Shown: piece by piece, positions 2 to 26,098 of the stretch
Layout of the letters: every line of letters starts with the position of its first letter
Position numbering within the stretch: the first letter of the stretch is position 1
Assembly (NCBI GenBank): GCA_024695415.1
Contig: JAILIE010000039.1
Location: 1-58,239, forward strand
Length of the DNA: 58,239 nt
From: Clostridiales bacterium
GTDB taxonomy: Bacteria; Bacillota; Clostridia; Christensenellales; Aristaeellaceae
Direction: 5' to 3'
Made by a program: the position numbers and the translations under genes
The notes under the pieces: model-generated
Seen by the model: only the letters and a program-made list of their open reading frames with translations
The model's database searches: none
What the model was told of the DNA's origin: nothing

Positions 2-2272
2 GCACTGGAAAAAACGCCGGACCATCCGGCGTCCGCCTGCAACCGGGCCCTGTACCGGTGGCGGAACGGGGAGATTGAGTATGACGAGCTGGTCCGGATC
101 GGCAGCTCGCCCCGCGTGGCAGAGGCAGGGATGAAAGACCGCTTCCTGGCGCAGGCTGAGTCGGAAAAGAAAGATATTGCGCCTCGTACGTTCTATCCTT
201 TCAGCCGCGGGGAGAGCGGCAAGGATACCGGACCCCGGGTACGGTTCAGCCCGGACGGAAAGATCCTGTACACGGCTTATGACGCGGTATTCGCATACCG
301 GACTGACACCATGGATGAGGTGTACCGCAACCGGGAAGGAATCAGCGGGGCGTCGGTCGATATGCTGGAGGTCACCCCGGACGGAAGGTACCTGCTTTTC
401 CATACGGCATATCCGGACCCGTGGATTTACGACCCGGATTTCGGCGTGAACCGGGTGGATCCCTCCGGGGATTACAACCGGATATGGGTGGCGGACGCGG
501 CTTCCGGAAAGATCCTGCACAGCCTGGACAGGCACACGATGCCGGTCACGGCCCTGTGTGTGTTTCCGGACAGCGTTCACTGTGTCACCGCCGGCCGGGA
601 TAACCGCCTGATTCGGTGGGACCTGACGACAGGACGATATGAAAAAGAGATGGAAGAGCCACTGGATACTTTCCTGGGGCTTAGTGTCCGCCCGGACGGA
701 AAGATCCTGTGCGGCAGGAACCACCTGGGTAACCTGTGGACCTGGGACACCGCTTCCTTCCGTCATCTGAAAACATCTGACAATCAAATCAGCCAACGCC
801 TGTTCAGGACATGGGACGCCTGCTTCGCGGCGGACGGGGAAAGCGTTTTCGCGGCCTGCGACGGCGGCTTCGCCGTGTGCGAAACGGATACCCTGGAGGC
901 TCGCTTGCTGATCCCTGACCGGCACCGGCAGAGACGGATGCGGACTGTCGGGAAAGCGGTGGTGACCGGGGACGAAGCGGGCGGCGTAACGGTACGCGAT
1001 CCTGAATCATTCCGCGCCCTGCAGGCATACCGGGGCTTCGCCGGAAAGATCGAAAGCCTGGACATTTCACCGGATATGTCCCGGATCGCGGCAGGGGACA
1101 ATACCGGAAACCTGCTGATCTGGGACCGGCAGGCATCCGTGCGCCGCGTTCCGTGGGAGCTGAACCGGATCAGCGGATATGAGGCAGCGGTTGACCGGAA
1201 ACAGGCGGAGCAGGGGCTGCGGGCCGGGATTGAATCCGCCATCGACAACCACCGGATCGACCAGGCGATCCTGCTTTTGAACCGGGCGGAAAGCGAGGAG
1301 GAACCTTACACTTTCTTTGACCTGCGCCGGCGGATTTCCCGGCAGTGCGCGCCTGGCCGCGTGACCGGGTGGTATACCGTATGGCAGCGGGAACTGGACC
1401 ATTACGACCGGATTGCCGCGTTCCATCCCCAGGACGGAACGATGGCGGTGCTCCATTCTTTCCGGATTGATTTCCATGAAGATACCGGACGCCTGATCGG
1501 CGATATCCGGACAACCAAAATGGACCATTACGGACGGGCGTATGGCCCCGCCCTGTGCTATTCCCCGGACGGGCAGTTCCTGGCGGTCGGCAGTTCGGAG
1601 GGTACCCTTTTGCTGGATCCGAAGGAACGGAGCGTCCGCCGGATTCTGCCCGGAATAAACGACTATGTTTCCGTCCAGGCTTTCAGCCCGGACGGAAGGT
1701 TCCTGGCCGCGACGACACAGGAAAAGCTTTGCGTTTGGGACCTGGAAACCGGCCTTCCGGTGCTGGAGGAGGATATCCGGAAAATCCCGGCGAAGGGAGT
1801 GGTATTCCCGTACAGCACCCATCTCGCGGTACTGGAATCGAATACCATCCATGTGTTTTCCGTTCCGCAGGGCCGGGAGGCCAGGATTATCCGGCCGGGA
1901 CAGCGCTATGACGGAATGGCGCTGGGCAATGGAGGCAAAGAACTCTTCCTGTTCACGGAAGGCGCTGACCGGAATATGGTGACCCTGCGCACGGATACCT
2001 GGCAGTCGGCGGGAACGCTGGAGATCGGGCCCCGGGGCCCGCAGGACCCGGCAGCGTTCGCGGTCAGTCCGGACAGCAGATTGCTGGCGGTATCCCTGGA
2101 GAACCAGATCATCATCCGCTCGCTTCGGGACGGCCGTGTGCAGCAGGCTTTCCACATGACGGAAAAGGTATTCAACCTGGCATTCTCCCCGGACGGGAAT
2201 ATGCTGCTGATTATCTGCGAAGAAAAACTGCACTGCCTGGCGCTGCAAAGAGAGCTGATTTTTCCCGGATAA
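2..2272 (+). CDS. Sensor half of a kinase-propeller protein, 5' end outside window
   Basis: The frame is open from base 2, and the first visible residues (ALEKTPDHPASACNRALYRW) match the TPR segment that follows the kinase domain in the neighbouring paralogs. The gene therefore starts left of the window, and the GTG at 116 is not its start. The visible 756 residues hold the end of the TPR segment, a first WD40-like propeller with repeated SPDG/LWD-type blades, a helical connector (about residues 380-455, starting near WELNRISGY), and a second propeller ending in LALQRELIFPG. No membrane segment is seen. The kinase domain is expected upstream by analogy with the gene at 2373. This is probably the sensor/interaction part of a cytosolic Ser/Thr kinase; its ligand or substrate is unknown. 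Confidence 0.9.
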   Translation, partial: ALEKTPDHPASACNRALYRWRNGEIEYDELVRIGSSPRVAEAGMKDRFLAQAESEKKDIAPRTFYPFSRGESGKDTGPRVRFSPDGKILYTAYDAVFAYRTDTMDEVYRNREGISGASVDMLEVTPDGRYLLFHTAYPDPWIYDPDFGVNRVDPSGDYNRIWVADAASGKILHSLDRHTMPVTALCVFPDSVHCVTAGRDNRLIRWDLTTGRYEKEMEEPLDTFLGLSVRPDGKILCGRNHLGNLWTWDTASFRHLKTSDNQISQRLFRTWDACFAADGESVFAACDGGFAVCETDTLEARLLIPDRHRQRRMRTVGKAVVTGDEAGGVTVRDPESFRALQAYRGFAGKIESLDISPDMSRIAAGDNTGNLLIWDRQASVRRVPWELNRISGYEAAVDRKQAEQGLRAGIESAIDNHRIDQAILLLNRAESEEEPYTFFDLRRRISRQCAPGRVTGWYTVWQRELDHYDRIAAFHPQDGTMAVLHSFRIDFHEDTGRLIGDIRTTKMDHYGRAYGPALCYSPDGQFLAVGSSEGTLLLDPKERSVRRILPGINDYVSVQAFSPDGRFLAATTQEKLCVWDLETGLPVLEEDIRKIPAKGVVFPYSTHLAVLESNTIHVFSVPQGREARIIRPGQRYDGMALGNGGKELFLFTEGADRNMVTLRTDTWQSAGTLEIGPRGPQDPAAFAVSPDSRLLAVSLENQIIIRSLRDGRVQQAFHMTEKVFNLAFSPDGNMLLIICEEKLHCLALQRELIFPG

Positions 2273-2325: not shown

Positions 2326-2372
2326 CCGGATAGTGGGAGAAGTGGCCGAATAAGATACCTGTGGGGGAGCAT

Positions 2373-5300
2373 ATGGCGGACGATTGCAAAGACAAGGACC
2401 TCTGGGCACAGCTGCTGGGCGCGGCACAGACGGAAGCGGCGAAAGAACAGGAAGTGACCAGCCCCAAAGAAGAACCGGAGGATCCCTGGGCCCAGCTGCT
2501 GGGGGCCGCGGAGAAACATATCGCGGAACAGCAGAGAGGGGACACCCTGAATGCTCCGGAGGTACCCTTCGCAAAGGGTTCCGTGCTGCTGTATACCTAC
2601 CGGATTGAAAGCGATCCCATGCACGGCGGCATGGGAGATATATGGCGGGTCCACCATACCGGGTGGAACATGGACCTGGCGATGAAACGGCCGCAGGAGA
2701 AGATGTTCTCAAGCGAGTCCTCCAAGCAGGGGTTCATCGACGAGTGCCAGAACTGGATCAACCTGGGTCTGCATCCCAACATCGTGTCCTGTTACTATGT
2801 CCGTGAGATTGACGGCGTTCCGACGATCTTCTCGGAATGGATGGAGAATGGGGATCTGGAGAATCATATCCGGAATGGGACCCTGTATGACGGGAACGAA
2901 GAAGAGATTCAGAAACGCCTGCTGGACATCGCAATCCAGTACGCACGCGGACTGCATTACGCCCATGACGCCGGATTGATCCACCAGGATGTAAAACCGG
3001 CCAACCTCCTTTTAACCAATGACTGGCAGGCAAAGGCGGCAGACTTCGGCCTGGCAAACGCCCGGGCCCAGCTCACGGTCCTGGAAGGGGATGTGACGGA
3101 GCAGGATCCGGGACAGAGCCTGAACGCCGCTGCGGGCGGATATACCCCGGCCTACTGCTCCATGGAGCAGATGGACGGAAAGACGCTGACCCGACGGACA
3201 GACATCTACAGCTGGGCTGTTTCCGTGATGGAAATGTATTACGGATCCCGCCCATGGACCAACGGCCCGGTGGCTGGTATGAACTGCCGGGACTATATGG
3301 AGGATCAGGAAAGCCGGATGACAATCCCGCAGAAACTGCAGGGCTTGCTGGCAAAGTGCATGGCGCTGGAGGAGGACGACCGGCCGCACGATTTCGGGAT
3401 CGTTGAAGATGAACTGAAGATCATCTGGCGGGAGTCTTTCGGGGAGGACTATCCCCGGCCGGAACCGGAGGCGGCCCCGGATACCGCGGACTCGTTGAAC
3501 AACCGGGCACTGACATTCCTGGACCTGGATTTGCGGGAAATAGCAGAGCGCCTTTGGACTCAGGCACTGGAGAAGGAACCGGACCACCTGGCATCAGTCT
3601 ATAACCTGGGATTGTACCGGTGGCGGAGGGGCCTTTTCCGGCTGGAAAACCTGATGCGCCAGTGCAGTGAACTGCTGGCGGCCTCCCGGGGACCAGTACA
3701 GGAGAAAACTGCCTGCCGCATTCTGGAGCAGATTAAAGCGGAAAAAGAGGATACGGATCCCTGCGCGAACATTCTTTGCGTCCGCCGGGAGATTGATAAT
3801 TTCGAACCGTCGCATCACTCTCCTGCGGCATGTTTCAGCCCCGACGGCAGGATTCTCTATACGTTGAACGACACGCTGGCTGCGTACCGGACGGACAGCA
3901 TGGAGGAAATCTGGTGCCGGCCGGAGGCTGTCGGAGACACTCTCGCGACGGACCTGACGGTCACGCCGGACGGAAAACACCTCCTGTTCCGCAGGAAACG
4001 TTCCACGCGGATGCGGAACGGGAAGGAAATTGTGGTGAACCCCGGCGAGGACCGTAAACTCTGGGTGGCGGAAGCAACGACCGGGAAGGTCCTGCGCGAT
4101 CTGGATGTCGGGTATGGAAACAACAGCACGTACTGCCTGCATCCCGACAGCGCCCGCTGCTTTGTTTGCGACGGAGAAAAGGTTACCGTATGGGACCTGA
4201 CTTCCGGGAAAAGGGTCAACCAATACGCCGTACCGGGTGAAAAAAGGGAGATTCCTCAGACGACAGTCAGTCCGGACGGAAAGACACTCTGCATTCTGGG
4301 CACCGTCCGCGGCGAACAGTGCCTGATGTTTCTCTTGGACGCGTCATCCGGTCACCTGCTCCGCATGGCGGAGTTTGAGGAAGATTTTTGCTTTACCCCG
4401 GTTTTCATGCCGGACGGCAAAGAAATCTACACCTCCTACCAGTCCGGAATCGTGATATGGGATGCGGATACACTGAGGTACAGGACGGTTGATACCATCC
4501 AGACGCCGGATAAAATGTGGATCAGTCCGGACGGTACGCGGCTCCTGACCACTGATATGGATTTCAACATACGTCTCTGGGAAACGAAAGACTTCCGCCT
4601 GCTGCGTTCTTTCCAGGGGACGCATGAGTATATCCTGTCCATGGACGCTGCGCCGGATCTTTCCCGGATCGCGGTCGCGGATTGGAGCGATCATGTACTG
4701 GTCTGGGACGCGGCTTCACCTGTCCGGTCTGCCTTGTGGGAGGTCAGCCGGATCCGGGACTACAGCGCTGTGGTCGACCTGCGCCAGGCCGAGAACCGGA
4801 TGACGGAGAAGATTCGGGCGAGGATCGACAGCGGCCGGATCGATGAGGCCCTGGAACTTTTGCTCCGGGCGGAAGGCGAATACGGCCGACATACCTTCTT
4901 CCCCCTGCGCCGGGATATTGCCCGGTACTGCACCCGGAAGGGACTGACCGGGAAATATGAAATCGGATCGTTTTCAGCCGGCAGCTGGTCTGCACAGGAA
5001 AACATGACAGCATTCCATCCCGTAAACGGGACGATTTCCGCTTTCGGGCAGCATGCCCGAATCGCCTGGATTTATGATGAAAGTGGGAAAATGATCCGAA
5101 TGGCGGACATTCCGGGCCTGAAAGAATTCGATGACGGACTGCATGCTTCATGCTACTCCCCGGAGGGAGAGTACCTGGCTTTTGCCGGGGATCACGCGGT
5201 GATGATGCTGGATCCGGAGAGCAATATCGTTTTCAAGATACTGAAAGGGCCGGAAGGTAAATTCCGGCATCTCGAATTCAGTCCCGACGGACAGCTGTTG

Positions 5301-6134
5301 GCGGCCTGCGGGATCGGGAAATATTCCTATGTATGGAGTGTGAAAACCCAGACGCCGGTCATGAAAATACGGAATCCGGACTCCTGGGGAGGTATTACGG
5401 CAATTCGGTTCATCCGGGACGGAAAGCAGCTGGTAACCCTGAGCGAAGGCGGAATGGATGTGTTCAGCATTCCGAAGGCTATCTGGAAGGAAGCGGAGGA
5501 GCAGGCACGGCCCGACCATATCTACCGGATGACCGTCAAATGTGCTGACTGCGCAGTGAGCCGGGACGGAAAGCAGCTATTCCTGTTCACAGCCGATCCG
5601 GAAAGAAGGGTTTATGTCCGTGATACAGAGAGCTGGGCATTTACAGGATCCTACCCGCTTACCCGGGAAGGGAAGGGTTATATCCAGCATCCCCGTATCT
5701 ATCCGTTCAGCGTCAGTCCGGATGATGCGCTGCTGGCTACCGCGGAGGACCGGACGGTGATCATATGGTCCATGGAAGATGGCAGAGAGCTGGAGTCTTT
5801 TGATATGGCGGAGGCGGTGAAGGAACTGCGGTTCAGTCCGGACGGGAACGTCCTGCTGGCGATCAGCGGCGAGGAAGCACACTGCTGGGCCATTCGACGG
5901 GAAATGGTGTTCCCCGGATGGAAGGAGCGGGAGGAAGCGGCGGAACCGGTCATTGAACGGTTCCTGGAATCTTTCCCGCATCCGCGGGAGGCGCAGCGGC
6001 AGCTTCTTTTGCGGGAACTGGGAAACAAAGGCTTCGGATTTATCCGGAAGGAAAGCGTCCTGTCCCGGATGGGAGAGCCGGAAGACGATCCGGAACCGCC
6101 GGGGCCCATTGTGGGCGAGGACATTCCGTACTGA
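2373..6134 (+). CDS. Ser/Thr protein kinase with TPR and two WD40-like propellers
   Basis: A Hanks-type kinase, 1253 residues, cytosolic (no membrane segment). ATG 2373 is chosen over the in-frame GTG at 2361 because GGGGGAG (2363-2369) precedes it and the MADD/MAND-type start is shared with paralogs. Order: two copies of a D-x-WAQLLGAA motif (about residues 9-18 and 37-46), kinase domain about 76-355, TPR-like stretch 370-425, first propeller about 475-830, helical connector 835-895, second propeller 900-1200, then a Pro/Glu-rich tail. Kinase residues present: glycine loop GGMGDIW, Lys105, HQD with Asp206, Asn211, DFG Asp224. It should be catalytically competent, but it is a non-RD kinase (Gln for Arg), and the APE region reads SMEQ. 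PkwA of Thermomonospora is the classical kinase-WD40 precedent. Substrate and signal are unknown. Confidence 0.93.
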   Translation: MADDCKDKDLWAQLLGAAQTEAAKEQEVTSPKEEPEDPWAQLLGAAEKHIAEQQRGDTLNAPEVPFAKGSVLLYTYRIESDPMHGGMGDIWRVHHTGWNMDLAMKRPQEKMFSSESSKQGFIDECQNWINLGLHPNIVSCYYVREIDGVPTIFSEWMENGDLENHIRNGTLYDGNEEEIQKRLLDIAIQYARGLHYAHDAGLIHQDVKPANLLLTNDWQAKAADFGLANARAQLTVLEGDVTEQDPGQSLNAAAGGYTPAYCSMEQMDGKTLTRRTDIYSWAVSVMEMYYGSRPWTNGPVAGMNCRDYMEDQESRMTIPQKLQGLLAKCMALEEDDRPHDFGIVEDELKIIWRESFGEDYPRPEPEAAPDTADSLNNRALTFLDLDLREIAERLWTQALEKEPDHLASVYNLGLYRWRRGLFRLENLMRQCSELLAASRGPVQEKTACRILEQIKAEKEDTDPCANILCVRREIDNFEPSHHSPAACFSPDGRILYTLNDTLAAYRTDSMEEIWCRPEAVGDTLATDLTVTPDGKHLLFRRKRSTRMRNGKEIVVNPGEDRKLWVAEATTGKVLRDLDVGYGNNSTYCLHPDSARCFVCDGEKVTVWDLTSGKRVNQYAVPGEKREIPQTTVSPDGKTLCILGTVRGEQCLMFLLDASSGHLLRMAEFEEDFCFTPVFMPDGKEIYTSYQSGIVIWDADTLRYRTVDTIQTPDKMWISPDGTRLLTTDMDFNIRLWETKDFRLLRSFQGTHEYILSMDAAPDLSRIAVADWSDHVLVWDAASPVRSALWEVSRIRDYSAVVDLRQAENRMTEKIRARIDSGRIDEALELLLRAEGEYGRHTFFPLRRDIARYCTRKGLTGKYEIGSFSAGSWSAQENMTAFHPVNGTISAFGQHARIAWIYDESGKMIRMADIPGLKEFDDGLHASCYSPEGEYLAFAGDHAVMMLDPESNIVFKILKGPEGKFRHLEFSPDGQLLAACGIGKYSYVWSVKTQTPVMKIRNPDSWGGITAIRFIRDGKQLVTLSEGGMDVFSIPKAIWKEAEEQARPDHIYRMTVKCADCAVSRDGKQLFLFTADPERRVYVRDTESWAFTGSYPLTREGKGYIQHPRIYPFSVSPDDALLATAEDRTVIIWSMEDGRELESFDMAEAVKELRFSPDGNVLLAISGEEAHCWAIRREMVFPGWKEREEAAEPVIERFLESFPHPREAQRQLLLRELGNKGFGFIRKESVLSRMGEPEDDPEPPGPIVGEDIPY

Positions 6135-6175
6135 AAGAAGCCTGATCAGGATAACCCCGGAATATCACAACGGTT

Positions 6176-7228
6176 TTAATCCGGCATGTAATTTTCCAGA
6201 ACGTAATCCTCAAACAACGGCAATTCAAAACGAATGACGCCGTATACATCCCCATTAATGATCCCTTTTCGGATTAATCTGGTACGATATGGCGTAAACC
6301 GGTTGCTGCTCATCTGCAGGAATTCACGGATTGAGGAAACAGAACCGCCCGGGGTACTGGCAATACCGTAGAGCACCCTCTGATCCTCAGCGGAGAGTTT
6401 CTGCCAGATTTTTTCATAGACATATTCCTGCAGATACTGTTTGTATTCCTGATGAATCCTGGAAGGATCATTCCGATATTCCCAGGTGAAATACCCAAGA
6501 ACCTGGAAAGCGAAAGAATAGCCCTTAGTCTTCCTTGCCATATCAAGAGCCGATTCCGGCGTGAGATCAAAAATCCGGGCATAACTCTCGGTCATTCTGC
6601 CTATGTTCAATGGCGTCAGGGCAATTCTAGGCGCACGGTACAGGAATGTAAGCGTCTTTTGATCCTGCAGCACCCGGATGTTTTCATACAATCCTGTCAT
6701 CAGGAGGAATAAAGGCAGTTCATTCCGGAGAAAAATCTGGAAAGCGCTTGCGAACACTTTCATGGAGGGAGTGCTGGAAACTTCATCAATAGCGATTAAA
6801 ACCCTCTTATGGTGTTTTTTCAGGCTGGAAAGCATCTTTGTCAGTGCGACTTCAATGTCACGTTCTGGCTCGGCTCCATCAATCTGCAATCCTAATCCAA
6901 ACGCGGAAAGATTAATCTTAGCCGCATGAAAGATTTCCTTCAGCGTGCTTTCTCCGCTGAGCTTTGCGGCAAGATTCTGCAGCAGATCCCGATCAGGATT
7001 CAATTCCACGACTACCCAATCTTTTTCATTCTGAAAGTGCTTACAGACGGACGTCATGAAAACTGTTTTTCCGCTTCCCCTGACACCGGTAACAATGCTG
7101 ATATGCTTGCTTGGCTGATCGCTCATAAAGGATTGAATCAGATCTTTCATCAGAAGAGGCCGGGGAATCATCTCGTAGGGCTCACGGCCAAAGTCCAGCG
7201 TGAAGGGGTTTGTTTTCATCGTTGCCAT
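6176..7228 (-). CDS. AAA-type ATPase with C-terminal winged helix
   Basis: 350-residue P-loop ATPase. Walker A GVRGSGKT is at residues 48-55, Walker B VLIAIDEV at 143-150, and a sensor-like LLMTG follows at 176-180. The C-terminal 75 residues (LSAEDQRVLYGIAS onward) look like a winged helix. The N-terminal NPFTLDFG resembles a widespread family of stand-alone ATP-binding proteins (NPFxPxFG start) in Bacillota; a comparison with Orc1/Cdc6 and STAND ATPases is also reasonable. ATG 7228 has AAGGAG seven bases upstream. The gene sits between two kinase genes on the opposite strand and is visibly more AT-rich than they are, which suggests separate acquisition. Whether it works with the kinases is not shown by the sequence. 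Confidence 0.85.
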   Translation of the reverse strand: MATMKTNPFTLDFGREPYEMIPRPLLMKDLIQSFMSDQPSKHISIVTGVRGSGKTVFMTSVCKHFQNEKDWVVVELNPDRDLLQNLAAKLSGESTLKEIFHAAKINLSAFGLGLQIDGAEPERDIEVALTKMLSSLKKHHKRVLIAIDEVSSTPSMKVFASAFQIFLRNELPLFLLMTGLYENIRVLQDQKTLTFLYRAPRIALTPLNIGRMTESYARIFDLTPESALDMARKTKGYSFAFQVLGYFTWEYRNDPSRIHQEYKQYLQEYVYEKIWQKLSAEDQRVLYGIASTPGGSVSSIREFLQMSSNRFTPYRTRLIRKGIINGDVYGVIRFELPLFEDYVLENYMPD

Positions 7229-7261
7229 TTTCCTGCTCCTTGTTTTCTTTTATCGGCAAAA

Positions 7262-7309: not shown

Positions 7310-7345
7310 ACTTTGTCAATATTCCCGCGAATAGTCGAAGACGAT

Positions 7346-7351: not shown

Positions 7352-7377
7352 AAAGCTTTTCCCACCGCTTTTCCGTG

Positions 7378-10500: not shown

Positions 10501-10793
10501 AGCTGATCCCCCTGCGGGAAGGGATCAGCCTGAAGAAAATCCGAATTGTAAGTGATTCATACCTCAACTGCGATTTCCTGACGGACGACCGCTTCATCCT
10601 TTTCCAGGGCCGGAGCAAAACCGTGCGGATTTTTGATACCCAGCAGGATACCACCGCGGAATACGTGTTTGATCCGGCGGAATACGGGGAAATCAGCCCC
10701 GTCAACGACGATTGTTTCGCCATACGTCGGAGGGACAAACAATGCATGTGCTGGATCGAATGGAATTACGAATTGCCGGAACAAAACGCCTGA
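7545..10793 (+). CDS. Ser/Thr protein kinase with TPR and divergent propeller sensor
   Basis: 1082-residue cytosolic kinase-sensor protein. ATG 7545 follows GGGAGGAG. The two N-terminal WAQLLGAA motifs are at about residues 11-18 and 39-46. Kinase domain about 75-350, with Lys103, HQD Asp204, Asn209 and DFG Asp222 all present; the region is nearly the same as in the gene at 2373. A TPR-like stretch follows at about 372-415. The sensor half is unlike the double SPDG propellers of its neighbours: blades at about 480-800 are degenerate (few SPDG turns), a helical stretch lies near 800-880, and the last 190 residues look like a short second propeller. The gene is 69 bases ahead of the kinase gene at 10863 and probably co-transcribed with it. 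Input signal is unknown. Confidence 0.92.
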   Translation: MANDRKDDDLWAQLLGAAQTEAAKEQEVSEPREAPEDPWAQLLGAAEKHIAEQGNSPAASDAPFAKGSILLDTYRIESDPLKGGMGSVWRVHHTGWNVDLAMKRPLPERFADEASKKLFIDECQHWIKLGLHPNIVSCYYVREIDGVPTIFSEWMENGDLKHHIDNGTLYDGSEEEVQKRLLDIAIQYARGLHYAHEQGLIHQDVKPANLLLTSDWQAKAADFGLANARAQLTVLEGDITQQDPGQSLNAAAGGYTPAYCSMEQLDGKTLTRRTDIYSWAVSVMEMYYGSRPWANGVVAGAGCRDYMSDPECRIKLPEGLQDLLGQCMEADADDRPHDFAAVLEQLKSIYREIAGEDYPRPEPEAAADTADSLNNTALSYLDMGMPEKAEQLWDQALQKDARHLNTLFNRTLSRWRRGLIDMRDPGEQLKAIQDAKAKEECVRILEQESEGTLVLPEEELILPEDVLSLRQYTRGVRRVFGSIQRGPRYVPDGEPNPVEYLVYGVPEKRILFSMEDGSTGIYHGEISMSWDGEYVAVEICREDEDGRKDKWTTEVYQLSTGNRVGDFPKRRGKLSPDGAFIVFMDRKSGQVFVYETATGRLHRTWTGYQFWGWLWDGRMVLHHEETMDIVVQGRPDGTGPQKEIILFNGEYFSPPSIYQLNESQMVIPLPWMDLSDSDKGYMLCDVNQGTTHLFTSGKELEHMFFTLTGDGHYVVKIKRDGLVEVWNMQNPRKENSFYLQSISESRFLYMAAHPGCVSYTPGTRADYRLNVISGTRDRLNAQKEFSQKLQDAQRARDAGDTAGALRLLDEAMTLPGFEASPEALRMRAGAGAGLKKLSVRRIVPLELPALETAPSLRKQAGQEEVQRFASVLLALEKDLKERWEDDNGEWQIDAWPREYSRDGRFLLIRLYIRQDYDNPAQDDIEITQWGGGAVVNVQTGEVIYQKDYFYCYENMSSIRHTERDYCIHPDHTGSRLLVCGDSNDIQLIPLREGISLKKIRIVSDSYLNCDFLTDDRFILFQGRSKTVRIFDTQQDTTAEYVFDPAEYGEISPVNDDCFAIRRRDKQCMCWIEWNYELPEQNA

Positions 10794-16800: not shown

Positions 16801-17382
16801 ATACAGCCCGCGGGCATACTGGATAGCGATGTCCAGCAGGCGCTTCCGGACTTCTTCTTCGCTCCCGTCATACAGGGTTCCGTTATCGATATGTTGCTTC
16901 AGATCCCCGTTTTCCATCCATTCGGAGAAGATCGCCGGGACACCGTCGATCTCACGGACATAGTAGCAGGATACGATGTTCGGATGCAGGCCCAGATTGA
17001 TCCAGTTCCGGCACTCGTCGATAAAGCCCTGTTTGGAGGATTCGCTTGAGAATATCTTTTCCTGCGGACGCTTCATCGCCAGGTCTACATTCCACCCGGT
17101 ATGGCGGACCCGCCACACGTCGCCCATGCCGCCGTGCATCGGGTCGCTTTCGATCCGATAGGTTCCCAGCAGCATAGCCCCTTTCGCGAAGGGCGCGTCC
17201 GAAACAGGGATATTTTTTTCTTCCTGTCCGGCGATATGCTTCTCCGCCGCGCTGAGTAGCTGCGCCCAGGGATCCTCTGGTTCATCCCTGGGCTTTGTCA
17301 TCTCTTGCTCTTTCGCCGCTTCTGTCTGTGCCGCGTCCAGCAGCTGTTCCCAAAGGTCGTCGTGATTACTTTTATCTGTCAT
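13810..17382 (-). CDS. Ser/Thr protein kinase with TPR and two WD40-like propellers
   Basis: 1190 residues, cytosolic. ATG 17382 follows GGAGGAG. The N-terminal motif pair reads DDLWEQLLDAA and DPWAQLLSAA. Kinase domain about 75-352 with Lys104, HQD Asp205, Asn210 and DFG Asp223. Unlike the other members, the APE region keeps SPEQ (AYCSPEQMAGNN) and the segment after DFG is GTWAQL rather than NARAQL. TPR about 368-420; first propeller about 470-800 with many SPDG turns; connector 805-865 (WEVSRIRQTDAV); second propeller to the end, finishing in FWALQWNLAVPDS. It lies 54 bases downstream of the double-kinase gene and is probably in the same transcript. Function beyond kinase activity is unknown. 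Confidence 0.93.
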   Translation of the reverse strand: MTDKSNHDDLWEQLLDAAQTEAAKEQEMTKPRDEPEDPWAQLLSAAEKHIAGQEEKNIPVSDAPFAKGAMLLGTYRIESDPMHGGMGDVWRVRHTGWNVDLAMKRPQEKIFSSESSKQGFIDECRNWINLGLHPNIVSCYYVREIDGVPAIFSEWMENGDLKQHIDNGTLYDGSEEEVRKRLLDIAIQYARGLYYAHEQGLIHQDVKPANLLLTKDWQAKAADFGLAGTWAQLTVLEGDPTERDSGQSLNAAAGGYTPAYCSPEQMAGNNLTRRTDIWSWAVSVLEMYYGSRPWTNGVVAGAGCREYFSGCRIRMPESLQELLARCLEVDPDFRPHDFGIIEAELTKIWRESFGEDSLRPAPKAAADNADSLNNRALTYLDLNMPEKAEECWAAALEKEPGHPEATYNQGLYEWRGGRIRYPEMARRCASLAASGSPDSADAIVRFQEQAERENEDRAPIAIWRIDHQSENTYVPLGTHPKVAFSPDGRLVYSAFDTLSCHQAEPLKELYSNPEAIGNTMADRMRITPDGKYLVYRKMNPDSARYNGRKARGVPGEAGDESWLWVADAATGAVVRRIHAHPMKMMAFCLLPEGNECVTVGTDGTQIQVYRWDLETGTRTAVLEEPEHDHLWDAQIACASPDGRLLCVLFSFRVALWDLETGRVLRVEKRLLECWDACFFPDGKRILSCRRRFRELEIWDLETLDFVSFPVPAETYHVWINPEGTQILTDDDDRRLTLRDAESLRVLRVFQWHEGQIRGFDVTPDVRRIVSVDWFENVVLWDAVKPVRLAPWEVSRIRQTDAVLRRQQAEDRLRAEIEKALETGQNGSALSLLKKAESEYDPYRFFALRRELTRRCGRKDLEGLYEFNSYQPEAWKLKSDMYRNGSVRFRPSGRTVAIRYESSPLLEFREDTGRIIRTLQMPDSFDRHQVLREMDFSPDGKYLAADGQDSVLLLDLGSEDEPRQLYRENKKRGIFVNPVFSPDGRMLAANCGTTRGFGMSYTVAHVWNTSTGELVLNKDDENHEIKDLWFLADGKRLAVLKFRRLEIWSLPGGEVEKDITLDVTCMYIRLSADGKTLYLFTGGLERRILFLDTETWTFTDPPFYFADAKASDDNLYFRFSPDDTLLAVAVEKEIRIWSFRDRKLVRTLSMTDWVADLAFSPDSCIMGATCHNFAHFWALQWNLAVPDSSGA

Positions 17383-17436: not shown

Positions 17437-20400
17437 TCAGCCGGGGGATTCCAGGTTCCATTGGATGGACCAGAAATGGGCGGTTTTTTCACAGAGCGCA
17501 GCGAGAATGCACCCGTCCGGCGAGAAGGAAACCTGCTGGACGGCGGTGGGAACCTGGATCTCCAGCAGCCGGATGTTCTCCCGGACAGACCAGAGGGACA
17601 CCGTTTTGTCAACGGCGGAAACCAGGACGCTTCCGTCCGGGCTGGCGCAGAACCGGTGATTCCAGTACTCGCCTTCCATCGGGCAGGTCCGGATCCTGCC
17701 GGCGCTTTCCCAGGTTTTCACATTCCAAAGAAGCATGCCGTCGTCGCAGGAAATATGCAGGATATCCGGATCCGTTCCCGGCAGGAAGCATCCGCGCTCC
17801 AGGATTCTGGATTCATAGGTGAGGATTTTTTCTCCGGAGGAAAGGTCAAACAGGTGCAGTCCATGCTGGTCGGTCATCGCGATATGCTTTCCGTCCGGGA
17901 GGAAGCACAGATCATGCGTCCACGATGGTTTGGTATGGATTTCCGTGATTGCGCGGCCGGACGCGGTATCCCAGACGACCAGGTTGGCTTCCTGCCCTCC
18001 GGTGGCCAGCAGCGAATCGTCCGGACTGAAAGCCATGGCGGTGAAATGGTTTGTTTCGGACTTCAGTTCCCGGAGAAGATGGCGGGATTGGGGATCATAG
18101 AGCAGGACAGGGGAGTCGCCGCCTGCCGCCAGCAGTTTTCCGGAATGGGAGAAGCGCAGGATGGAGGATATATCATAGCTGTAATCCCGGGCCGGCAGCG
18201 CCAGAGTACCGATATGGCCGCCGGTATCCTGCCAAATCCGGATTTCCGGATCATTCAGGATGCGGAACCAGGCGGTTCCTCCCTGCGGATGGAATGCCAG
18301 GTCCCGGCCGGGGAACTTCCATCCCTTTTTCATCATCAGGTCCTCGGGAATCGGGAAAGTAGTGATTTCATAGTATGCGGCAGGGGATTTCCGGACACAG
18401 CGGCGGGTGAGTTCCCTGCGCAAAGGCAGCAACTCAAACCGATTAAACCGGCGCTCGCCGTCCGCCAACAGGGATAGTGCGGCGCTGACGCGGCTTTCGG
18501 ATACAGCAGACTGGATTCTGTCCTTCAGGGCATCCATCTCCGCCTGTTGGGAGACGATTCGCTGATAGTCACAGATCCGACTGACTTCCCATGGCGCGCT
18601 TTTTCCGCTTCCGCCGACATCCCATACCAGGATATTCCGGTCCAGATCTGCGGAGACAATGCGCTCCAGTCCAGGGGAGGCGTCGATCCGCATTAATTTC
18701 GCCTGATGCCCCTCAAACACCCGGAGGCACTGAAAACTGGTGGAATCCCAAAGCATGATCCGGTTCTGGTCGTCACCGGACAGGAATCGGCTTCCTTTAC
18801 CGGCAGGGTTGATCCTTTGCAACTGCGCGGCGGTGGGTATCTGCCGGGATTCCAGCGTTTCCAGATCCCAAACGGTGAAACCGCTCCAGTCGTTAAACCC
18901 TGATTGTCCGCAGGTGCAGACGCTTTTTCCGTCCCCGGTGAAGCAAAGAGACCGTCTTGCGTAATCGAAATCGGTTTCAACCGATCGGAGCTGGTGTCCG
19001 GTGGCTTCCTCCCACACCATCAGCAGGCAGGAAGTGATTCCCACCAAAAGCTGTCCGTCCGGACTCAGGCAGAGGCAGCGGAAGGGGCCGTGCTTCGCCT
19101 CTTTCCCGCTGATATCATATGAAATCAGCCTGGATCCGGTTTCCAGATCCCGCTTGTACAGGGCGTCCTCCCCATGGCCGTTGTTGTAGTGAGCGGTATA
19201 AACATGCTGATTGTCGGGGGACAGGAGCATTGCGTTGAAGTTTTCCGAATTCATCGGCAGGACGCGAAGAACCTTCCCGGTTTCCGCGGAGACGACAAAC
19301 AACCGGTTCAGTTCCTCCATGTTGGCGATATACTGCTGACCGGATGCGTCGGTTTTTACCAGCGCGTTTTTGCAGAATACAATGGTTTTCCCATCCGGGG
19401 TCAGGGCCATCTGGTCCACCGTGGTATCCCCCAGCGCATCCGCGTTGACGTATTCCGGATCAGGGGAACCGACGCGGCAGCGGTAGATGGCGTCCAGGCC
19501 GGCATAAAATACGTTTTTGTCCGGACTCATCAGGACCCGGGGAAAGACGTTGCGGGTATCGTGAATCTCCCTGATTCCGCAGCGCCAGGAAGATACCGGT
19601 CCGTCGTTCCGGGCTTCCGCCATCGCCTGCGCTTTCAGACGCTCCGCCTGGCCGGGATCCGTTTTCACACTGGCGGATTCCGCCAGCGCCGCGCAGCGTC
19701 GTTCCATATCCCTGAAATCGAGTTGTCCGTTCCGCCACTGGTAAAGGCTCAGGTTATAGACGGCAGCGGGGTGGTCGGGTTCCTTCTCCAATGCTTCCTT
19801 CCAGTACATCTCCGCTTTTTCCGGCATCCCCAGGTCCAGGAAGCTCAGGGCGCGGTTGTTCAGGGAGTCGGCGGTATCGGGGGCCGCCGTCGGTTCGGGC
19901 CGGGGATAGTCATCGCCGGTGACATGCCGGTAGATGGACAGCAGCTTTTCCCCCACGACGGCGAAGTCATGGGGGCGGTCCTCCGGATCCTGCTCCATGC
20001 ATTCCGCCAGCAGGGCCCGAAGTTCCTCCGGGACCGCCACCCGGCCGTCCGGGTCCGCCAGATACTCCCGGCAGCCGGCGCCGGCGACCACGCCGTTCGT
20101 CCACGGGCGGGAACCGTAATACATCTCCATCACGGACACTGCCCAGCTGTAGATATCGGTTCTGCGGGTCAGCGCCTTCCCGTCCATCTGTTCCATCGAG
20201 CAGTAGGCGGGGGTATAACCGCCCGCCGCGGCGTTCAGGCTCTGTCCCGGATCCTGCTGAGTTACGTCGCCCTCCAGCACGGTGAGCTGGGCCCGGGCGT
20301 TCGCCAGGCCGAAGTCCGCGGCCTTCGCCTGCCAGTCGTTCGTCAAAAGCAGGTTCGCCGGTTTCACGTCCTGGTGGATCAGGCCCTGCTCATGCGCGTA

Positions 20401-23400
20401 ACGCAGGCCGCGGGCATACTGGATCGCAATGTCCAGCAGGCGCTTCTGTATTTCCTTTTCATTTCCGTCATACAATGTGCCATCGTCGATATGATGCTTC
20501 AGGTCCCCGTTTTCCATCCATTCAGAAAAGATGGCCGGGACACCGTCGATCTCACGGACATAATAGCAGGACACGATGTTCGGATGCAGGCCGAGGTCGA
20601 TCCAGTTCCGGCATTCGTCGATGAAGCCCTGTTTGGACGACTCGTCCGCGAACATCTTCGGCTGGGGACGCTTCATGGCCAGGTCCACGTTCCAGCCGGA
20701 ATGGCGAACGCGCCAGACGGAACCCATGCCGCCGTGCATCGGTTCGGATTCCACAAGGTAGGTATCCAGCAGCGTGGCGCCTTTCGCGAAGGGATTGTCC
20801 CGGGTCGGGGGAGCGGCCTTCGGTCCTGACTGGCGGTTAATCTCCGCGGCCGCGGCGCTGAGCAGCTGCGCCCAGGGATCGTCGGGAGCCGGGGCAGAGG
20901 GTTTCGGCGTCTCTTTTTCAGGCGGCTGATCCGGCTGCTTTTCCGCCTCGGTCCGGGCCGCGCCGAGCAGGCTGGCCCAGAGATCGCCGGCGTCCGGACC
21001 CTCTCCGGCGGTTTCAGGGTCGGTTCCCTTTTCAGCATCCGGGAGACCTTCTTCCACCGGAACATAGGTATGGTTCCAGAACCAGACGGAGATCGTTCCC
21101 TTCACGCTGCCGACATAGAGGGTGTTCCGGTCCGGGCTGCAGGCCACGGAAAGCGGCTTTTCATCCACGGAGGCCTCCCGGACGGAAACGGCGGTATCCA
21201 TGTCAAACACGTTCAGCAGCTTGTCCGTGCCAAGGGTGACCAGGAACCGGTTGTCCAGGAAATCCGGGAAGCAGTCCGCATCGCAGGGAATGATTGTATC
21301 CAGCATTTTGTTCATATCCACGACCACCTGGCCGATGACCGCCCGGCGGCCGTCGCCGGTGAAGGCGCAGACCGGGGAGATACAGGCGGAATCGTCGCGG
21401 AAGACCACCTCGCCGGAATCCGTACGGTAAATGACCGACTTCCCGGAGCATGAGTCAGGCTGGCCAAAGTTCAGGATGTCGCCCGCGGTCTGGATGGCGT
21501 ACTGTCCGTCCGGGGAGACTGCGGCGCCGGAAATCTGAACGTCGGATTCTGTTTCCAGAATGGTTTCAGGGAAGGATTTCCGGTCATAGCGGCAGACCGC
21601 TCCGCTGTCGAGACGATAGACGCAGCTGCCGTCCGGCAGGGCGAGGAAGTCCGTCACCCCGTCATCCGGGCAGGGGGAGGGGCAGTCCGCGAAGACGCGT
21701 TCATTTTCCTTCGGATCCGGGGTCAGCCGGTCCATGTCGAAGCAGAGCACTTCTCCGCCGGAGGAGGAGAGCAGGTCCTGGCCCATAAAGCGGATGCCGA
21801 TCTGTCCGCCGCCCCCTCCGAGGTTTGCTTTTTTGTCCGGATCTCCCGCTTTTCCGGTGACGATGGACCAGAAGCAGCTGCCCTGCCACTGCAGCTTTTT
21901 CCGGAACGCGTGGCGGCGGGCAGGATCCCGGTAGACCACGCGGCCGGTTTCGGTCTCCAGGACGGCCAGCTCCCCGGCGCCGGAAAGCGCGGCGATCCAG
22001 CGGCCGTCCGGGCTGGGACTGATGGAATGGACCTCTTTGCTGAAGACGGGCCAGGTTTTGAGAATGAAGGGCTGACCGGGCTGTTCTATGCGGCAGCGGG
22101 GTGAAAGGCGCCGGATGACGGCCAGCAGGTCCGGATCCGTGCGGAACTTGCCGCCGCTTACAGCGCAGGCTTCCGCGACGAGGGCCAGGGCGTCGGCGAC
22201 GAAGCCTTCGTTCACCGCGGCTTCCGCCTGGACGCGGAGGGCGTCGAATTTGCCCTGTTCCTCCAGGGAGTCGAGGGTGGTGCGTATCGTGCTCAGGACC
22301 CAGGGGCTGCGCCGGCTGAATTCCGGAACGCTGTAGCCGGTCAGCCGGGACATGAAGTCTGAGAAATATACCCGGTCACCGGAACCTGTCAGATAGGCGC
22401 GGAGGATGAGATTGATGCTGCAGTGCAGCTGTTCCTCCCCGATGGTGCAGAGCCAGCGGTGGTCCGGAACCGAGAACAGGACCCATCCGCTGTTGGTGCG
22501 GAGGAGAACCCGGTTCCCGTCACAGCTGACGGAATGCTGGCACTGGCGCCCCTGCCATTCCTCCATCCAGGGGAAGGGGACCTCCCAGCGCATGTCCCCG
22601 GCGGCCGCGTCGAACAGGCAGAGCGTGGGGGAAATACCGCCGCGGATGACCAGGATATCCCGGTCTTCCCGGACGAAGAGGGCCAGGGCCGGGCTGTCCG
22701 CCGTGATTTCCAGGCGGAAATCATCCCGGACGCCCTCCACGCGGATCAAATCCTGCCCCGGCAGGCAGACAAGGCACTTTCCGGCGCCGCGGGCGATGCC
22801 GACCATGTACTGCCCCTGGATCTGCTCGAGGTATTTCGTTTCTTTGGTATCGGTCTGCATCAGCACGATCCGGCCGTGGTTGGAGGCGATGATGGCCCAT
22901 TCACCGCGGGCGTCGATGTCCCAGACGACGATCTGCTCCCGGGGAAGCTTGCGCATGACCATGGCCTGGACCTGCTTTCCGTCGGAGGTCCGCCACTTGT
23001 ACACGTTGGGATCGCCGCGGTAAGTGCCGAAGCAGGCGATGGGATTTACCGAGGCGCGGACGTGGACTTCCGCCGGCGGGCCGGCTTCCTCCGCCCGGAT
23101 CATCGTACTGATCTCCTCATGGGAACCGGCGTCCAGGAAGCGGACGCATTCCGTTCCCCGGTGCCCGCCGCCTTCCATCGGCTGATGGACCAGCAGGAAC
23201 CGTCCGTCCGGGGTGATTTCTACCGGACCGTCGTGCTCGGAACCGGAATAACGGTACACTTCCTCCATGCGCTGCGCGTCAGCGCTTTCCCGCATGGAGG
23301 CCAGGTCCTCGCTGTACTCATCCGGGAAACGGCTTTCCACTTGGTCAAGCGTTGCCGGCAGCCCCTCGTCCCCACACTCGGACTGGACCCGGGCCAGGGC

Positions 23401-24642
23401 AACCCAGGCTTTCGGATCGTCCGGGTCGGAGATGGTAAACGCCCGGACCGCGGAGACGGCCGCGGCGTCGTCCATCCGGCCGGAACGGAAAGCGTGCAGC
23501 GCGGAATTGTATACCGCGTCCAGGCAGCGGCTGTTCTTTCGCACCGCGCGGTCCCAGCAGTCTTCCGCCAGGTCCTCCCGGCCGAGGTCCAGCCAGCTGA
23601 GCGCCATGTTGTTCAGGCTCTCCGCGGTGTCCGCCGCGGCTTTTGGCTGCGGGCGGGGATAGTCCGATCCGAAGGCGGCGCGCCAGATCTTTTTCAGTTC
23701 TTCCTCTATGATACCGAAATCCCGCGGGCGGTTTTCGGGGTCCTGCTCCAGGCAGCGCGCCAGGAGATCCTCCATCCCGTCCGGCAGGGGGACGCCGTCG
23801 CTTTCCTCCAGGTAATCCCGGAAGGCGACGCCGCCCACCACGCCGTTCTGCCACAGACGGCTGCCCAGGTACATTTCCAGGACCGTAAGGGCCCAGGAGT
23901 AGATGTCCGTGCGCCGGGTCAGGCGCTTGCCGTCCATCTGTTCCATGGAGCAGTAGGCGGGGGTATAGCCGCCGGATGCCACGCTCAGGTCCGGATCGTC
24001 CAGTGTCGCTTCGCCGGTGAGCACGGTCAGTTCGCCCCGCGGGTTGGCCAGGCCGAAGTCCCCGACCTTGACCTGCCAGCCGTCCGTCAGCATCAGGTTG
24101 GCCGGCTTGATATCCTGGTGAATCAGCCCGGAACGGTGGGCGTAGCGCAGGCCGCGGGCGGACTGGATCGCGACGTCCAGGATCCGCTTTTGTTTGTCCG
24201 CGCCTGATCCGTCGTACAGGGTTTTGTCGTCAATCCGGTCCTTCAGGCTGCCGTTGTCCATCCACTCGGCGAAGATCGTCGGAACGCCCTCCACGTCGCG
24301 GACATAGTAGCAGGAGACGATATTCGGATGGAGCCCCAGCAGGATCCAGTTGCGGCACTCATGAATGAATTGCTCCCTGGATTTTTCGTCCCGGAGCAAC
24401 CGGGGCTGGGGACGCTTCATCGCCAGGTCCACATTCCAGCCGGTGTGGCGCACGCGCCAGACGGACCCCATGCCGCCGTGGATCGGGTCGGACTCGACGC
24501 GGTAGTTATCCAGCACCATATCGCCCCGCTCCCAGGAGGCGGGGGAGGCCTGTTTCTGCGCCGCGCCGAGGAGCTGCGACCAGAGATCGTCATTGTTCGA
24601 AGAAGAGACGCCGGGACCGAAGCCGGTGATATCGTCTGCCAT
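17437..24642 (-). CDS. Giant protein with two kinase-TPR-propeller modules in tandem
   Basis: A single uninterrupted frame of 2401 residues. ATG 24642 follows AAGGGAG. Module 1: one DLWSQLLGAA motif (about residue 20), kinase about 45-325 with Lys76, HQD Asp177, Asn182 and DFG Asp195, TPR 340-385, propeller and connector to about 1190. Module 2: two more motif copies (GDLWASLLGAA near 1225, DPWAQLLSAA near 1255), a second kinase with its HQD Asp near 1422, TPR near 1590, then two propellers with connector to the C-terminus. Module 1 is the most divergent kinase of the array (DIKPANLML, GDFGLANPRGEL); module 2 is close to the others. It looks like an in-frame fusion of two neighbouring paralogs. 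No membrane segment is seen. Both kinase active sites appear intact. Confidence 0.9.
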   Translation of the reverse strand: MADDITGFGPGVSSSNNDDLWSQLLGAAQKQASPASWERGDMVLDNYRVESDPIHGGMGSVWRVRHTGWNVDLAMKRPQPRLLRDEKSREQFIHECRNWILLGLHPNIVSCYYVRDVEGVPTIFAEWMDNGSLKDRIDDKTLYDGSGADKQKRILDVAIQSARGLRYAHRSGLIHQDIKPANLMLTDGWQVKVGDFGLANPRGELTVLTGEATLDDPDLSVASGGYTPAYCSMEQMDGKRLTRRTDIYSWALTVLEMYLGSRLWQNGVVGGVAFRDYLEESDGVPLPDGMEDLLARCLEQDPENRPRDFGIIEEELKKIWRAAFGSDYPRPQPKAAADTAESLNNMALSWLDLGREDLAEDCWDRAVRKNSRCLDAVYNSALHAFRSGRMDDAAAVSAVRAFTISDPDDPKAWVALARVQSECGDEGLPATLDQVESRFPDEYSEDLASMRESADAQRMEEVYRYSGSEHDGPVEITPDGRFLLVHQPMEGGGHRGTECVRFLDAGSHEEISTMIRAEEAGPPAEVHVRASVNPIACFGTYRGDPNVYKWRTSDGKQVQAMVMRKLPREQIVVWDIDARGEWAIIASNHGRIVLMQTDTKETKYLEQIQGQYMVGIARGAGKCLVCLPGQDLIRVEGVRDDFRLEITADSPALALFVREDRDILVIRGGISPTLCLFDAAAGDMRWEVPFPWMEEWQGRQCQHSVSCDGNRVLLRTNSGWVLFSVPDHRWLCTIGEEQLHCSINLILRAYLTGSGDRVYFSDFMSRLTGYSVPEFSRRSPWVLSTIRTTLDSLEEQGKFDALRVQAEAAVNEGFVADALALVAEACAVSGGKFRTDPDLLAVIRRLSPRCRIEQPGQPFILKTWPVFSKEVHSISPSPDGRWIAALSGAGELAVLETETGRVVYRDPARRHAFRKKLQWQGSCFWSIVTGKAGDPDKKANLGGGGGQIGIRFMGQDLLSSSGGEVLCFDMDRLTPDPKENERVFADCPSPCPDDGVTDFLALPDGSCVYRLDSGAVCRYDRKSFPETILETESDVQISGAAVSPDGQYAIQTAGDILNFGQPDSCSGKSVIYRTDSGEVVFRDDSACISPVCAFTGDGRRAVIGQVVVDMNKMLDTIIPCDADCFPDFLDNRFLVTLGTDKLLNVFDMDTAVSVREASVDEKPLSVACSPDRNTLYVGSVKGTISVWFWNHTYVPVEEGLPDAEKGTDPETAGEGPDAGDLWASLLGAARTEAEKQPDQPPEKETPKPSAPAPDDPWAQLLSAAAAEINRQSGPKAAPPTRDNPFAKGATLLDTYLVESEPMHGGMGSVWRVRHSGWNVDLAMKRPQPKMFADESSKQGFIDECRNWIDLGLHPNIVSCYYVREIDGVPAIFSEWMENGDLKHHIDDGTLYDGNEKEIQKRLLDIAIQYARGLRYAHEQGLIHQDVKPANLLLTNDWQAKAADFGLANARAQLTVLEGDVTQQDPGQSLNAAAGGYTPAYCSMEQMDGKALTRRTDIYSWAVSVMEMYYGSRPWTNGVVAGAGCREYLADPDGRVAVPEELRALLAECMEQDPEDRPHDFAVVGEKLLSIYRHVTGDDYPRPEPTAAPDTADSLNNRALSFLDLGMPEKAEMYWKEALEKEPDHPAAVYNLSLYQWRNGQLDFRDMERRCAALAESASVKTDPGQAERLKAQAMAEARNDGPVSSWRCGIREIHDTRNVFPRVLMSPDKNVFYAGLDAIYRCRVGSPDPEYVNADALGDTTVDQMALTPDGKTIVFCKNALVKTDASGQQYIANMEELNRLFVVSAETGKVLRVLPMNSENFNAMLLSPDNQHVYTAHYNNGHGEDALYKRDLETGSRLISYDISGKEAKHGPFRCLCLSPDGQLLVGITSCLLMVWEEATGHQLRSVETDFDYARRSLCFTGDGKSVCTCGQSGFNDWSGFTVWDLETLESRQIPTAAQLQRINPAGKGSRFLSGDDQNRIMLWDSTSFQCLRVFEGHQAKLMRIDASPGLERIVSADLDRNILVWDVGGSGKSAPWEVSRICDYQRIVSQQAEMDALKDRIQSAVSESRVSAALSLLADGERRFNRFELLPLRRELTRRCVRKSPAAYYEITTFPIPEDLMMKKGWKFPGRDLAFHPQGGTAWFRILNDPEIRIWQDTGGHIGTLALPARDYSYDISSILRFSHSGKLLAAGGDSPVLLYDPQSRHLLRELKSETNHFTAMAFSPDDSLLATGGQEANLVVWDTASGRAITEIHTKPSWTHDLCFLPDGKHIAMTDQHGLHLFDLSSGEKILTYESRILERGCFLPGTDPDILHISCDDGMLLWNVKTWESAGRIRTCPMEGEYWNHRFCASPDGSVLVSAVDKTVSLWSVRENIRLLEIQVPTAVQQVSFSPDGCILAALCEKTAHFWSIQWNLESPG

Positions 24643-26088: not shown

Positions 26089-26098
26089 TAACCCGACG

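What the first reader, a model, noticed from the sequence alone, without database searches (positions are those of the whole stretch)
2..24642. Array of kinase-TPR-propeller proteins with constant kinases and variable sensors
Six complete kinase domains in five genes, plus the sensor half of another gene at the left edge, fill about 24 kb. By eye the kinase halves are nearly the same across members (shared GLHPNIVSCYYVREIDGVP, LIHQDVKPANLLL, QAKAADFGLA), while the propeller halves are widely diverged. A constant output with variable recognition suggests a family sensing different ligands and converging on one signalling pathway. Kinase-WD40 proteins are known (PkwA), but such a clustered set with shared N-terminal tags is new to me. 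A role in defence, self-recognition or regulation of a common target is speculation.
Basis: partly seen in the sequence, partly recalled or inferred. Interest (0 to 1): 0.78.

Follow-up and report, generated by a model that had tools for sequence, protein, structure and literature searches.

The report
Kinase array with interchangeable propeller sensors
A gut bacterium carries a row of very similar signalling kinases, each joined to a different propeller-type sensor, and the array appears to be an enlarged part of a little-known gene cluster that also holds a protein-destroying machine.

Summary
Confirmed: window 2-24642 holds five intact genes with six tag-kinase-TPR-sensor units, plus a sensor half cut by the contig edge. 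Three more family kinases lie on two short contigs. Seven of eight full kinases are 78-85% identical; sensors share 21-35%. The well-modelled sensor has two WD40 propellers.

Codon identity suggests kinase halves younger than sensors, and one sensor groups with Lachnospiraceae proteins while its kinase rejects that grouping (AU p=0.0008). Old sensors seem re-paired with one kinase type. (2) Relatives sit in an operon: FHA-kinase, PP2C, sensor-kinase, and a ClpB/FtsH-like double-ATPase metalloprotease. Ten of 18 protease-bearing loci hold all four, labelled Bacillota, Chloroflexota or Myxococcota. Here the protease lies next to a family kinase on contig C65; no FHA domain was found in this 80%-complete genome.

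Function is untested. Likeliest: many cytosolic sensors feeding one phospho-controlled proteolytic output; defence is possible, not shown.

The parts
2..2272 (+). Sensor half (W1; end of the TPR region and propellers) of a unit whose kinase lies beyond the contig edge
   Evidence: open-ended ORF, translation, WD40-type Pfam hits; 34% to two other window sensors
2361..6134 (+). Unit W2: tags at about 2361-2576, kinase 2577-3449, TPR then sensor 3450-6134. Model: propeller 1 about 3765-4709, helical linker about 4761-4922, propeller 2 about 4932-5909
   Evidence: AF2 model mean pLDDT 80; Foldseek to tandem WD40 chains
6176..7228 (-). 350-aa AAA/STAND-like ATPase between units, opposite strand; probably not part of the system
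   Evidence: only weak NCBIfam and PADLOC hits
7545..10793 (+). Unit W4: tags 7545-7742, kinase 7743-8615, TPR and diverged sensor 8616-10793
10863..13793 (+). Unit W5: tags 10863-11090, kinase 11091-11966, TPR and sensor 11967-13793. Low-confidence model: helices, 24 strands, C-terminal helices
   Evidence: AF2 mean pLDDT 54
13810..17382 (-). Unit W6: tags 17182-17382, kinase 16315-17181, TPR and sensor 13810-16314
17437..24642 (-). Unit W7, two units in one 2401-aa chain. W7a: tag 24526-24642, kinase 23662-24525, sensor about 21058-23661. W7b: tags about 20782-21057, kinase 19909-20781, sensor 17437-19908
2403..2506 (+). Example of the double tag DLWAQLLGAAQ...DPWAQLLGAAE (two matches, 2403-2422 and 2487-2506); the same pair sits at 7575-7594/7659-7678 and 10923-10942/11007-11026
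   Evidence: pattern search; motif listing

Best explanation
The array is an expanded set of cytosolic sensor-kinases that feed one phosphorylation pathway whose likely output is a dedicated double-ATPase metalloprotease. Shown by sequence: each unit is a short tag, a Hanks-type kinase with its catalytic motifs, TPR helices and a sensor (two WD40 propellers where modelled well); the kinase is conserved and the sensors are unalike and apparently older; many relatives sit in an operon with an FHA-domain kinase, a PP2C phosphatase and a ClpB/FtsH-like protease; in this genome the protease lies next to a family kinase. Inferred: a propeller binds a partner in the cytoplasm; units then trans-phosphorylate; in the core operon the phosphorylated Thr repeats of the kinase N-terminus recruit the FHA-kinase, PP2C resets the switch, and the protease removes or remodels targets. 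In this genome the Thr repeats are replaced by paired WAQLL helices and no FHA domain was found, so the tags probably dock the kinases on another common partner, perhaps the protease. New specificities arise by joining existing sensor modules to the common kinase backbone rather than by rapid point mutation.
For: Kinase 78-85% against sensor 21-35%. Lys, HxDxKPxN and DFG motifs in 8 of 8 kinases of this genome. No stretch as hydrophobic as a usual TM helix (largest 19-residue mean 0.69-1.47 in seven proteins). Two-propeller sensor model. Protease about 600 bp upstream of a family kinase on C65, and beside family kinases in G019 and G396. Of 76 loci found by the kinase, 18 hold the protease and 10 of these also FHA-kinase and PP2C. 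With at least 3 kb upstream and 4 kb downstream, Thr-repeat units are near the protease in 10 of 10 and near FHA-kinase and PP2C in 8 of 10; SKGS-tagged units in 0 of 17 (three loci moved by eye from the first group to the second). The same two genus genomes have kinases and protease. Protease motifs: HExGH, both Walker A and the second Walker B in 19 of 19; the first Walker B pattern in 17 and the third-ligand pattern in 16 of 19. Sensor re-pairing.
Against: No ligand, substrate or phosphorylation is known; all function is inference. C65, C47 and C90 are separate contigs of an 80%-complete genome, so linkage of the window to the protease is inferred. FHA-kinase was not found in this genome; PP2C was not searched genome-wide there. 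G396 (94% complete) has Thr repeats and the protease but no full-length FHA-kinase match and one FHA match elsewhere. Of ten protease-bearing genomes only G019 gave a full-length FHA-kinase match. The small gene between kinase and protease in G019 and G396 has no match in this assembly. The wider protease family (23 of 396 sampled order genomes) showed the family kinase beside it in only 1 of 22 fetched stretches besides G000 and G019 (protease hidden by ORF picking in 3). The tag does not recur in 14 FHA-kinases, 15 PP2C and 18 proteases, so its partner is unknown. No recent gene-conversion tract among the kinases (global P=0.63), so the route of re-pairing is not shown. Within-genome kinase codon identity (0.57-0.76) is not far above that of the G000-G019 protease pair (0.55), so any homogenisation is not recent; W1, W2, W6 sensor pairs and W2-W5 stay above random.
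Confidence: 0.5

Rival explanations
1. Anti-phage or other conflict system: a sensor repertoire that detects invaders and triggers phosphorylation and proteolysis, working like the KKP kinase-kinase-phosphatase module.
For: Patchy distribution (2 of 45 genus genomes), relatives in records labelled with seven phyla, an apparently swapped sensor, and the FHA-kinase, second kinase and PP2C trio of the core operon resembles KKP, which defends against phages (PMC11341870, passages seen).
Against: The 20 right-flank ORFs scanned gave no phage or defence gene by Pfam; PADLOC hits are generic kinase or AAA similarity; sensors are not under diversifying selection in 17 ortholog-like pairs; KKP-defining features fail (membership test).
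Confidence: 0.22
2. Tandem duplication with little function: copies are kept by dosage or drift and their sensors degenerate.
For: Accessory locus present in few relatives; the number of units per locus varies.
Against: All five complete genes are intact, 8 of 8 kinases keep catalytic motifs, kinase dN/dS is low, ortholog-like sensors are under purifying selection elsewhere, and 13 of 74 loci elsewhere hold two or more units.
Confidence: 0.12
3. The units are assembly regulators or scaffolds of a large machine, as the threonine phosphorylation pathway (PpkA kinase, PppA phosphatase, Fha1) is for type VI secretion.
For: Kinase, PP2C, FHA protein and a Clp-like ATPase occur together in both (for the pathway only a search listing with abstract starts was seen); tandem WD40 propellers are common in large complexes.
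Against: No secretion or contractile gene among the proteins scanned by Pfam, though many neighbours were not scanned; the protease carries a metallopeptidase domain, unlike ClpV (ClpV from recall).
Confidence: 0.1

Closest known systems
KKP kinase-kinase-phosphatase module (PfkA, PfkB, PfpC; PMC11341870, passages seen)
   Same: Core operon has two Ser/Thr kinases and a PP2C phosphatase; one kinase carries an FHA domain, the other a different C-terminal domain.
   Different: FHA is N-terminal here; the second kinase carries TPR and propellers, not a cold-shock domain; genes are longer, gene order differs, records are mostly Bacillota, a protease is added, and the window flank is not prophage-like.
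PkwA-type kinase-WD40 proteins (Thermomonospora curvata; recalled; PMC5587647 passages and PMC6113231 listing seen)
   Same: N-terminal Hanks-type kinase, C-terminal WD40 propeller.
   Different: Shared N-terminal tags, TPR linker, two propellers in the modelled sensor, clustered paralogs, operon with FHA-kinase, PP2C and protease.
MoxR-vWA ternary conflict systems, FtsH and beta-propeller subtypes (PMC7159879, passages seen)
   Same: FtsH-type AAA, propellers, TPR, sometimes kinases, FHA or PP2C in such neighbourhoods.
   Different: No MoxR or vWA gene recognised among the proteins scanned; the FtsH-like protein has a ClpB-D2-like first ATPase with intact Walker A and an M41 protease, whereas that paper describes an inactive first FtsH-type domain.
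Type VI secretion threonine phosphorylation pathway (PpkA, PppA, Fha1, ClpV; listing with abstract starts only)
   Same: Kinase, PP2C, FHA and Clp-like ATPase.
   Different: No secretion genes recognised among the proteins scanned; protease instead of ClpV; soluble sensor-kinases.
Apaf-1 (fold match only)
   Same: Tandem WD40 propellers as the sensor part.
   Different: Apaf-1 uses a STAND ATPase, not a kinase (recalled); common fold, no claim of descent.

Membership tests
Hanks-type Ser/Thr kinase | Pkinase profile above cut-off with catalytic Lys, HxDxKPxN, DFG | tested here: met
   Profile above cut-off in all five genes; motifs in 8 of 8 kinases of this genome; HQD stands in place of HRD
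WD40 beta-propeller protein | WD40 repeats folding as propellers | tested here: met
   Met for W1, W2, W6 and W7b by Pfam and for W2 by model and Foldseek; weak or unproven for W4, W5 and W7a; C47 sensor not scanned
KKP module | PP2C plus two neighbouring kinases | tested here: inconclusive
   FHA-kinase, PP2C and sensor-kinase together in 10 of 18 protease loci, in another order; not in the window
KKP module | One kinase with cold-shock domain, genes of 900-1300 bp | tested here: not met
   No cold-shock family in the Pfam lists shown for the window kinases (for the 2401-aa gene the best 25 of 40 families are shown); genes are 2.9-7.2 kb; definition
KKP module | Usually carried by prophages | tested here: not met
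   The 20 right-flank ORFs scanned gave no phage family; the left side ends at the contig edge
MoxR-vWA ternary system | MoxR ATPase and vWA protein in the cluster | tested here: not met
   No such family above cut-off in the Pfam lists of the window and G019 proteins scanned; the protease has one AAA_3 match below cut-off
FtsH family protease | AAA plus Peptidase_M41 with HExxH | tested here: met
   AAA and M41 above cut-off, HExGH in 19 of 19; but the NCBIfam FtsH score 336 is below its cut-off 600
Known anti-phage system (PADLOC) | Full set of model genes | tested here: not met
   Eight proteins scanned: kinase (mad6, PD-T4-6 and others) and AAA (IetA and others) similarities, no system gene set
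Phospho-signalling through FHA | FHA binding to phosphorylated kinase N-termini | not testable with these tools
   Only the motif pattern and operon linkage are seen

The most novel reading that the evidence does not exclude
A previously undescribed bacterial intracellular surveillance system: exchangeable propeller sensors are recombined onto one kinase backbone, short N-terminal docking tags assemble the active units with an FHA-kinase or another shared partner, and a soluble ClpB-FtsH double-ring protease executes the response; the window is an amplified receptor repertoire that has dropped the FHA branch.
Probability: 0.2. Interest if true: 0.85.

Novelty: new variant of a known kind. Interest (0 to 1): 0.6.

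Why it matters
If right, bacteria build receptor families by joining unlike sensors to one kinase, with a shared docking tag and a proteolytic output, a layout otherwise associated with eukaryotic receptor families. The full operon occurs in the genomes of Lachnospiraceae NE2001 and AC2029, which I recall as cultured rumen strains, so it could be tested. A 2017 survey counted only 5 WD40 proteins in 5 of 364 Firmicutes species (PMC5587647, passage); this family enlarges that picture.

Tried and rejected
Recent gene conversion as the cause of kinase similarity: no long shared silent tract (global permutation P=0.63). Fast diversifying selection on sensors: not seen in 17 ortholog-like pairs that I chose from the kinase tree (sensor dN/dS 0 to 0.41); several share a member and some have saturated silent sites; two further pairs of that call were set aside, L100/L106 (kinase 90%, sensor 33%, taken as another re-pairing) and L133/L136 (only 38 sensor residues). 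The idea that the WAQLL-like motif is shared by FHA-kinases came from one G019 protein by eye and failed in the 14 others tested. A clean empty site: LarC is in 8 of 8 relatives; in the six stretches fetched around it, MATE, BirA and the two EAL genes gave only one 28% MATE match, so no site was defined. The C65 ptsI gene was found in 1 of 8 relatives. A 13-row AU test was uninformative because those rows are scattered in the kinase tree; the 5-row test replaced it. Full-length AF2 of W5 was poor and was not searched. Adjacency of C65, reversed C47 and C90 as one array of eight genes and nine kinases is a guess from where the contigs break, not a result. Eight paper searches showed no description of this operon; they cover open-licence PMC papers only and I saw listings and passages.

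Full report
What is there. The window is the whole of contig C90 of an 80%-complete genome of 143 contigs. Its left 24.6 kb holds five complete genes with six kinase domains and one edge-cut sensor half. Each unit reads tag, kinase, TPR, sensor. The two last genes are on the minus strand, the others on plus; a 350-aa AAA-type ATPase of unknown role lies at 6176-7228 on the minus strand. To the right follow a LarC-like nickel-insertion gene, MATE, BirA, two EAL genes and other genes of ordinary families; some ORFs there have no Pfam match. Three more family kinases lie on C47 (one whole, one cut) and C65 (kinase whole, gene cut).

Kinase and sensor compared. Among the eight full kinases of this genome, seven share 78-85% amino acids (21 pairs), dN 0.10-0.15 and dS 0.5-0.9; the first kinase of the 2401-aa gene shares 63-67% with the others. 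The 21 pairs of complete sensors share 21-35%, dN 0.68-1.19, with silent sites near saturation. At residues identical in both proteins, codons agree in 0.57-0.76 of cases in kinases but 0.36-0.57 in sensors, with 0.44-0.47 expected at random (nine pairs). So the two halves do not look equally old. Caveats from the same call: identical residues in a 25% alignment include chance matches, which lowers the sensor figure; W2-W5 (0.57), W2-W6 (0.52) and W1 with W2, W6 and W7b (0.49-0.56) stay above random; and the protease pair of G000 and G019 scores 0.55, so the kinase halves are not very young either.

How sensors evolve elsewhere. In 17 ortholog-like pairs from other genomes, chosen by me, sensor dN is 0 to 3.9 times kinase dN (undefined in one pair with kinase dN 0) and sensor dN/dS is at most 0.41. 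Within this genome the ratio for the three best-aligned pairs is about 5 to 6.6 (W2-W6, W2-W7b, W6-W7b). A further pair, L100 and L106, has kinases 90% and sensors 33% identical. The C47 sensor is 53-54% identical over its length to sensors of Lachnospiraceae records L110, L115 and L116 and forms a 100/100 clade with them and L111 (the tool warns of long branches meeting elsewhere in that tree). Its kinase is up to 85% identical to its own genome's and 65% to L110's, and the tree with C47 and these four held together is rejected (p-AU 0.0008). That all eight kinases of this genome form one clade is not rejected (p-AU 0.73). I read this as old sensors joined to a younger, common kinase backbone. 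No recent conversion tract was found, so the process is older than that test can see.

Tags. The paired stretches DLWAQLLGAAQ and DPWAQLLGAAE, helical in the low-confidence W5 model, are found only ahead of these kinases in the genome (13 of 13 pattern matches). Relatives show three tag types: acidic Thr repeats such as TVYEEDETD, the WAQLL type, and an SKGS...ISNEEI type. That the Thr repeats resemble known FHA-binding phosphopeptides is recalled knowledge. Tag type follows neighbourhood: with at least 3 kb upstream and 4 kb downstream, 10 of 10 Thr-repeat units lie near the protease and 8 of 10 near FHA-kinase and PP2C; 0 of 17 SKGS units do. The other groups in that call are 3 WAQLL units (1 with protease, 2 with FHA-kinase and PP2C) and 9 untyped units (0 and 2). 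The patterns were written after seeing the N-termini, and L110, L115 and L116, which matched both types, were moved by eye from Thr-repeat to SKGS.

The operon. A scan of named genomes gave 76 loci (the best 80 of 135 matches kept). Eighteen carry a protein of about 1150-1210 aa with a ClpB-D2-like AAA domain, a middle stretch, a second AAA domain and a Peptidase_M41 domain (domains scanned on the C65 copy; the rest by similarity and motifs). Ten of the 18 also carry FHA-kinase and PP2C. The protease is in 2 of 45 genomes of the genus and a homolog in 23 of 396 sampled genomes of the order. Among 22 further stretches fetched around it, only that of G396 showed the family kinase beside it; in 3 of the 22 (L062, L070, L083) my ORF picking chose antisense frames and hid the protease. 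Two others (L074, L075) have a different kinase there, and L074 a sub-threshold PP2C match. A full-length FHA-kinase match was seen in G019 alone of ten protease-bearing genomes. The FHA family has no match in this genome but does in 7 of the 8 genomes searched, one of these (G433) only at E 8e-4.

Fold. The W2 sensor model (mean pLDDT 80) shows TPR-like helices, a propeller, a helical linker and a second propeller. Foldseek ranks tandem-WD40 chains such as Pwp2, CFAP52 and Apaf-1. Whole-length TM-scores are low (0.25-0.36 by query), which I put down to different relative poses of two rigid propellers. The W5 model is poor (pLDDT 54).

Mechanism. See Best explanation: anatomy, conservation and operon are shown; ligand binding, phosphorylation, FHA recruitment, tag docking and proteolysis are inferred.

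Known work. Kinase-WD40 proteins are known (PMC5587647, passages). The nearest functional parallel is KKP (PMC11341870, passages), whose defining cold-shock domain, gene size and prophage setting are not met here. The nearest genomic parallel is the FtsH and propeller types of ternary conflict systems (PMC7159879, passages), whose MoxR and vWA genes were not recognised among the proteins scanned. Eight paper searches showed no description of this operon; they cover open-licence PMC papers only.

Noticed in passing
window 24667-26121 (-): The LarC-like gene is one open frame of 484 aa here, while in 5 of 8 related genomes the match runs over a stop codon and in the six fetched stretches tblastn splits it in two pieces; this may reflect a programmed frameshift, as I recall for larC.
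   Followed up: partly
window 6176-7228 (-): Lone AAA/STAND-like ATPase inserted between array units in a stretch of lower GC (0.53 for 6001-9000).
   Followed up: partly
G435:C138 near 39247 and G436:C9 near 27718: FHA matches lie in open frames of 8668 and 6594 aa in the genomes of L094 and L095, both from Chloroflexota-labelled records.
   Followed up: no
G019:C29 167676-190682: Six FHA matches within about 23 kb in the related genome that has the core operon.
   Followed up: no
L121 7634-9307: In a Myxococcota-labelled locus a gene with FHA, GAF and HD domains sits between sensor-kinase and protease, hinting at a link to cyclic-di-GMP; the window also has EAL genes at 29609-31531 and 32278-35250.
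   Followed up: no
L036 4371-7670 (-): A 1099-aa kinase in the same genome whose C-terminal part looks by eye like BspA-type leucine-rich repeats, a different kinase-sensor pairing.
   Followed up: no
L098 2-14317, L136 13326-19661, L144 and L146 2-6388: Chains with three kinase units in one open frame, like the two-unit gene of the window; fusion of units is recurrent.
   Followed up: partly
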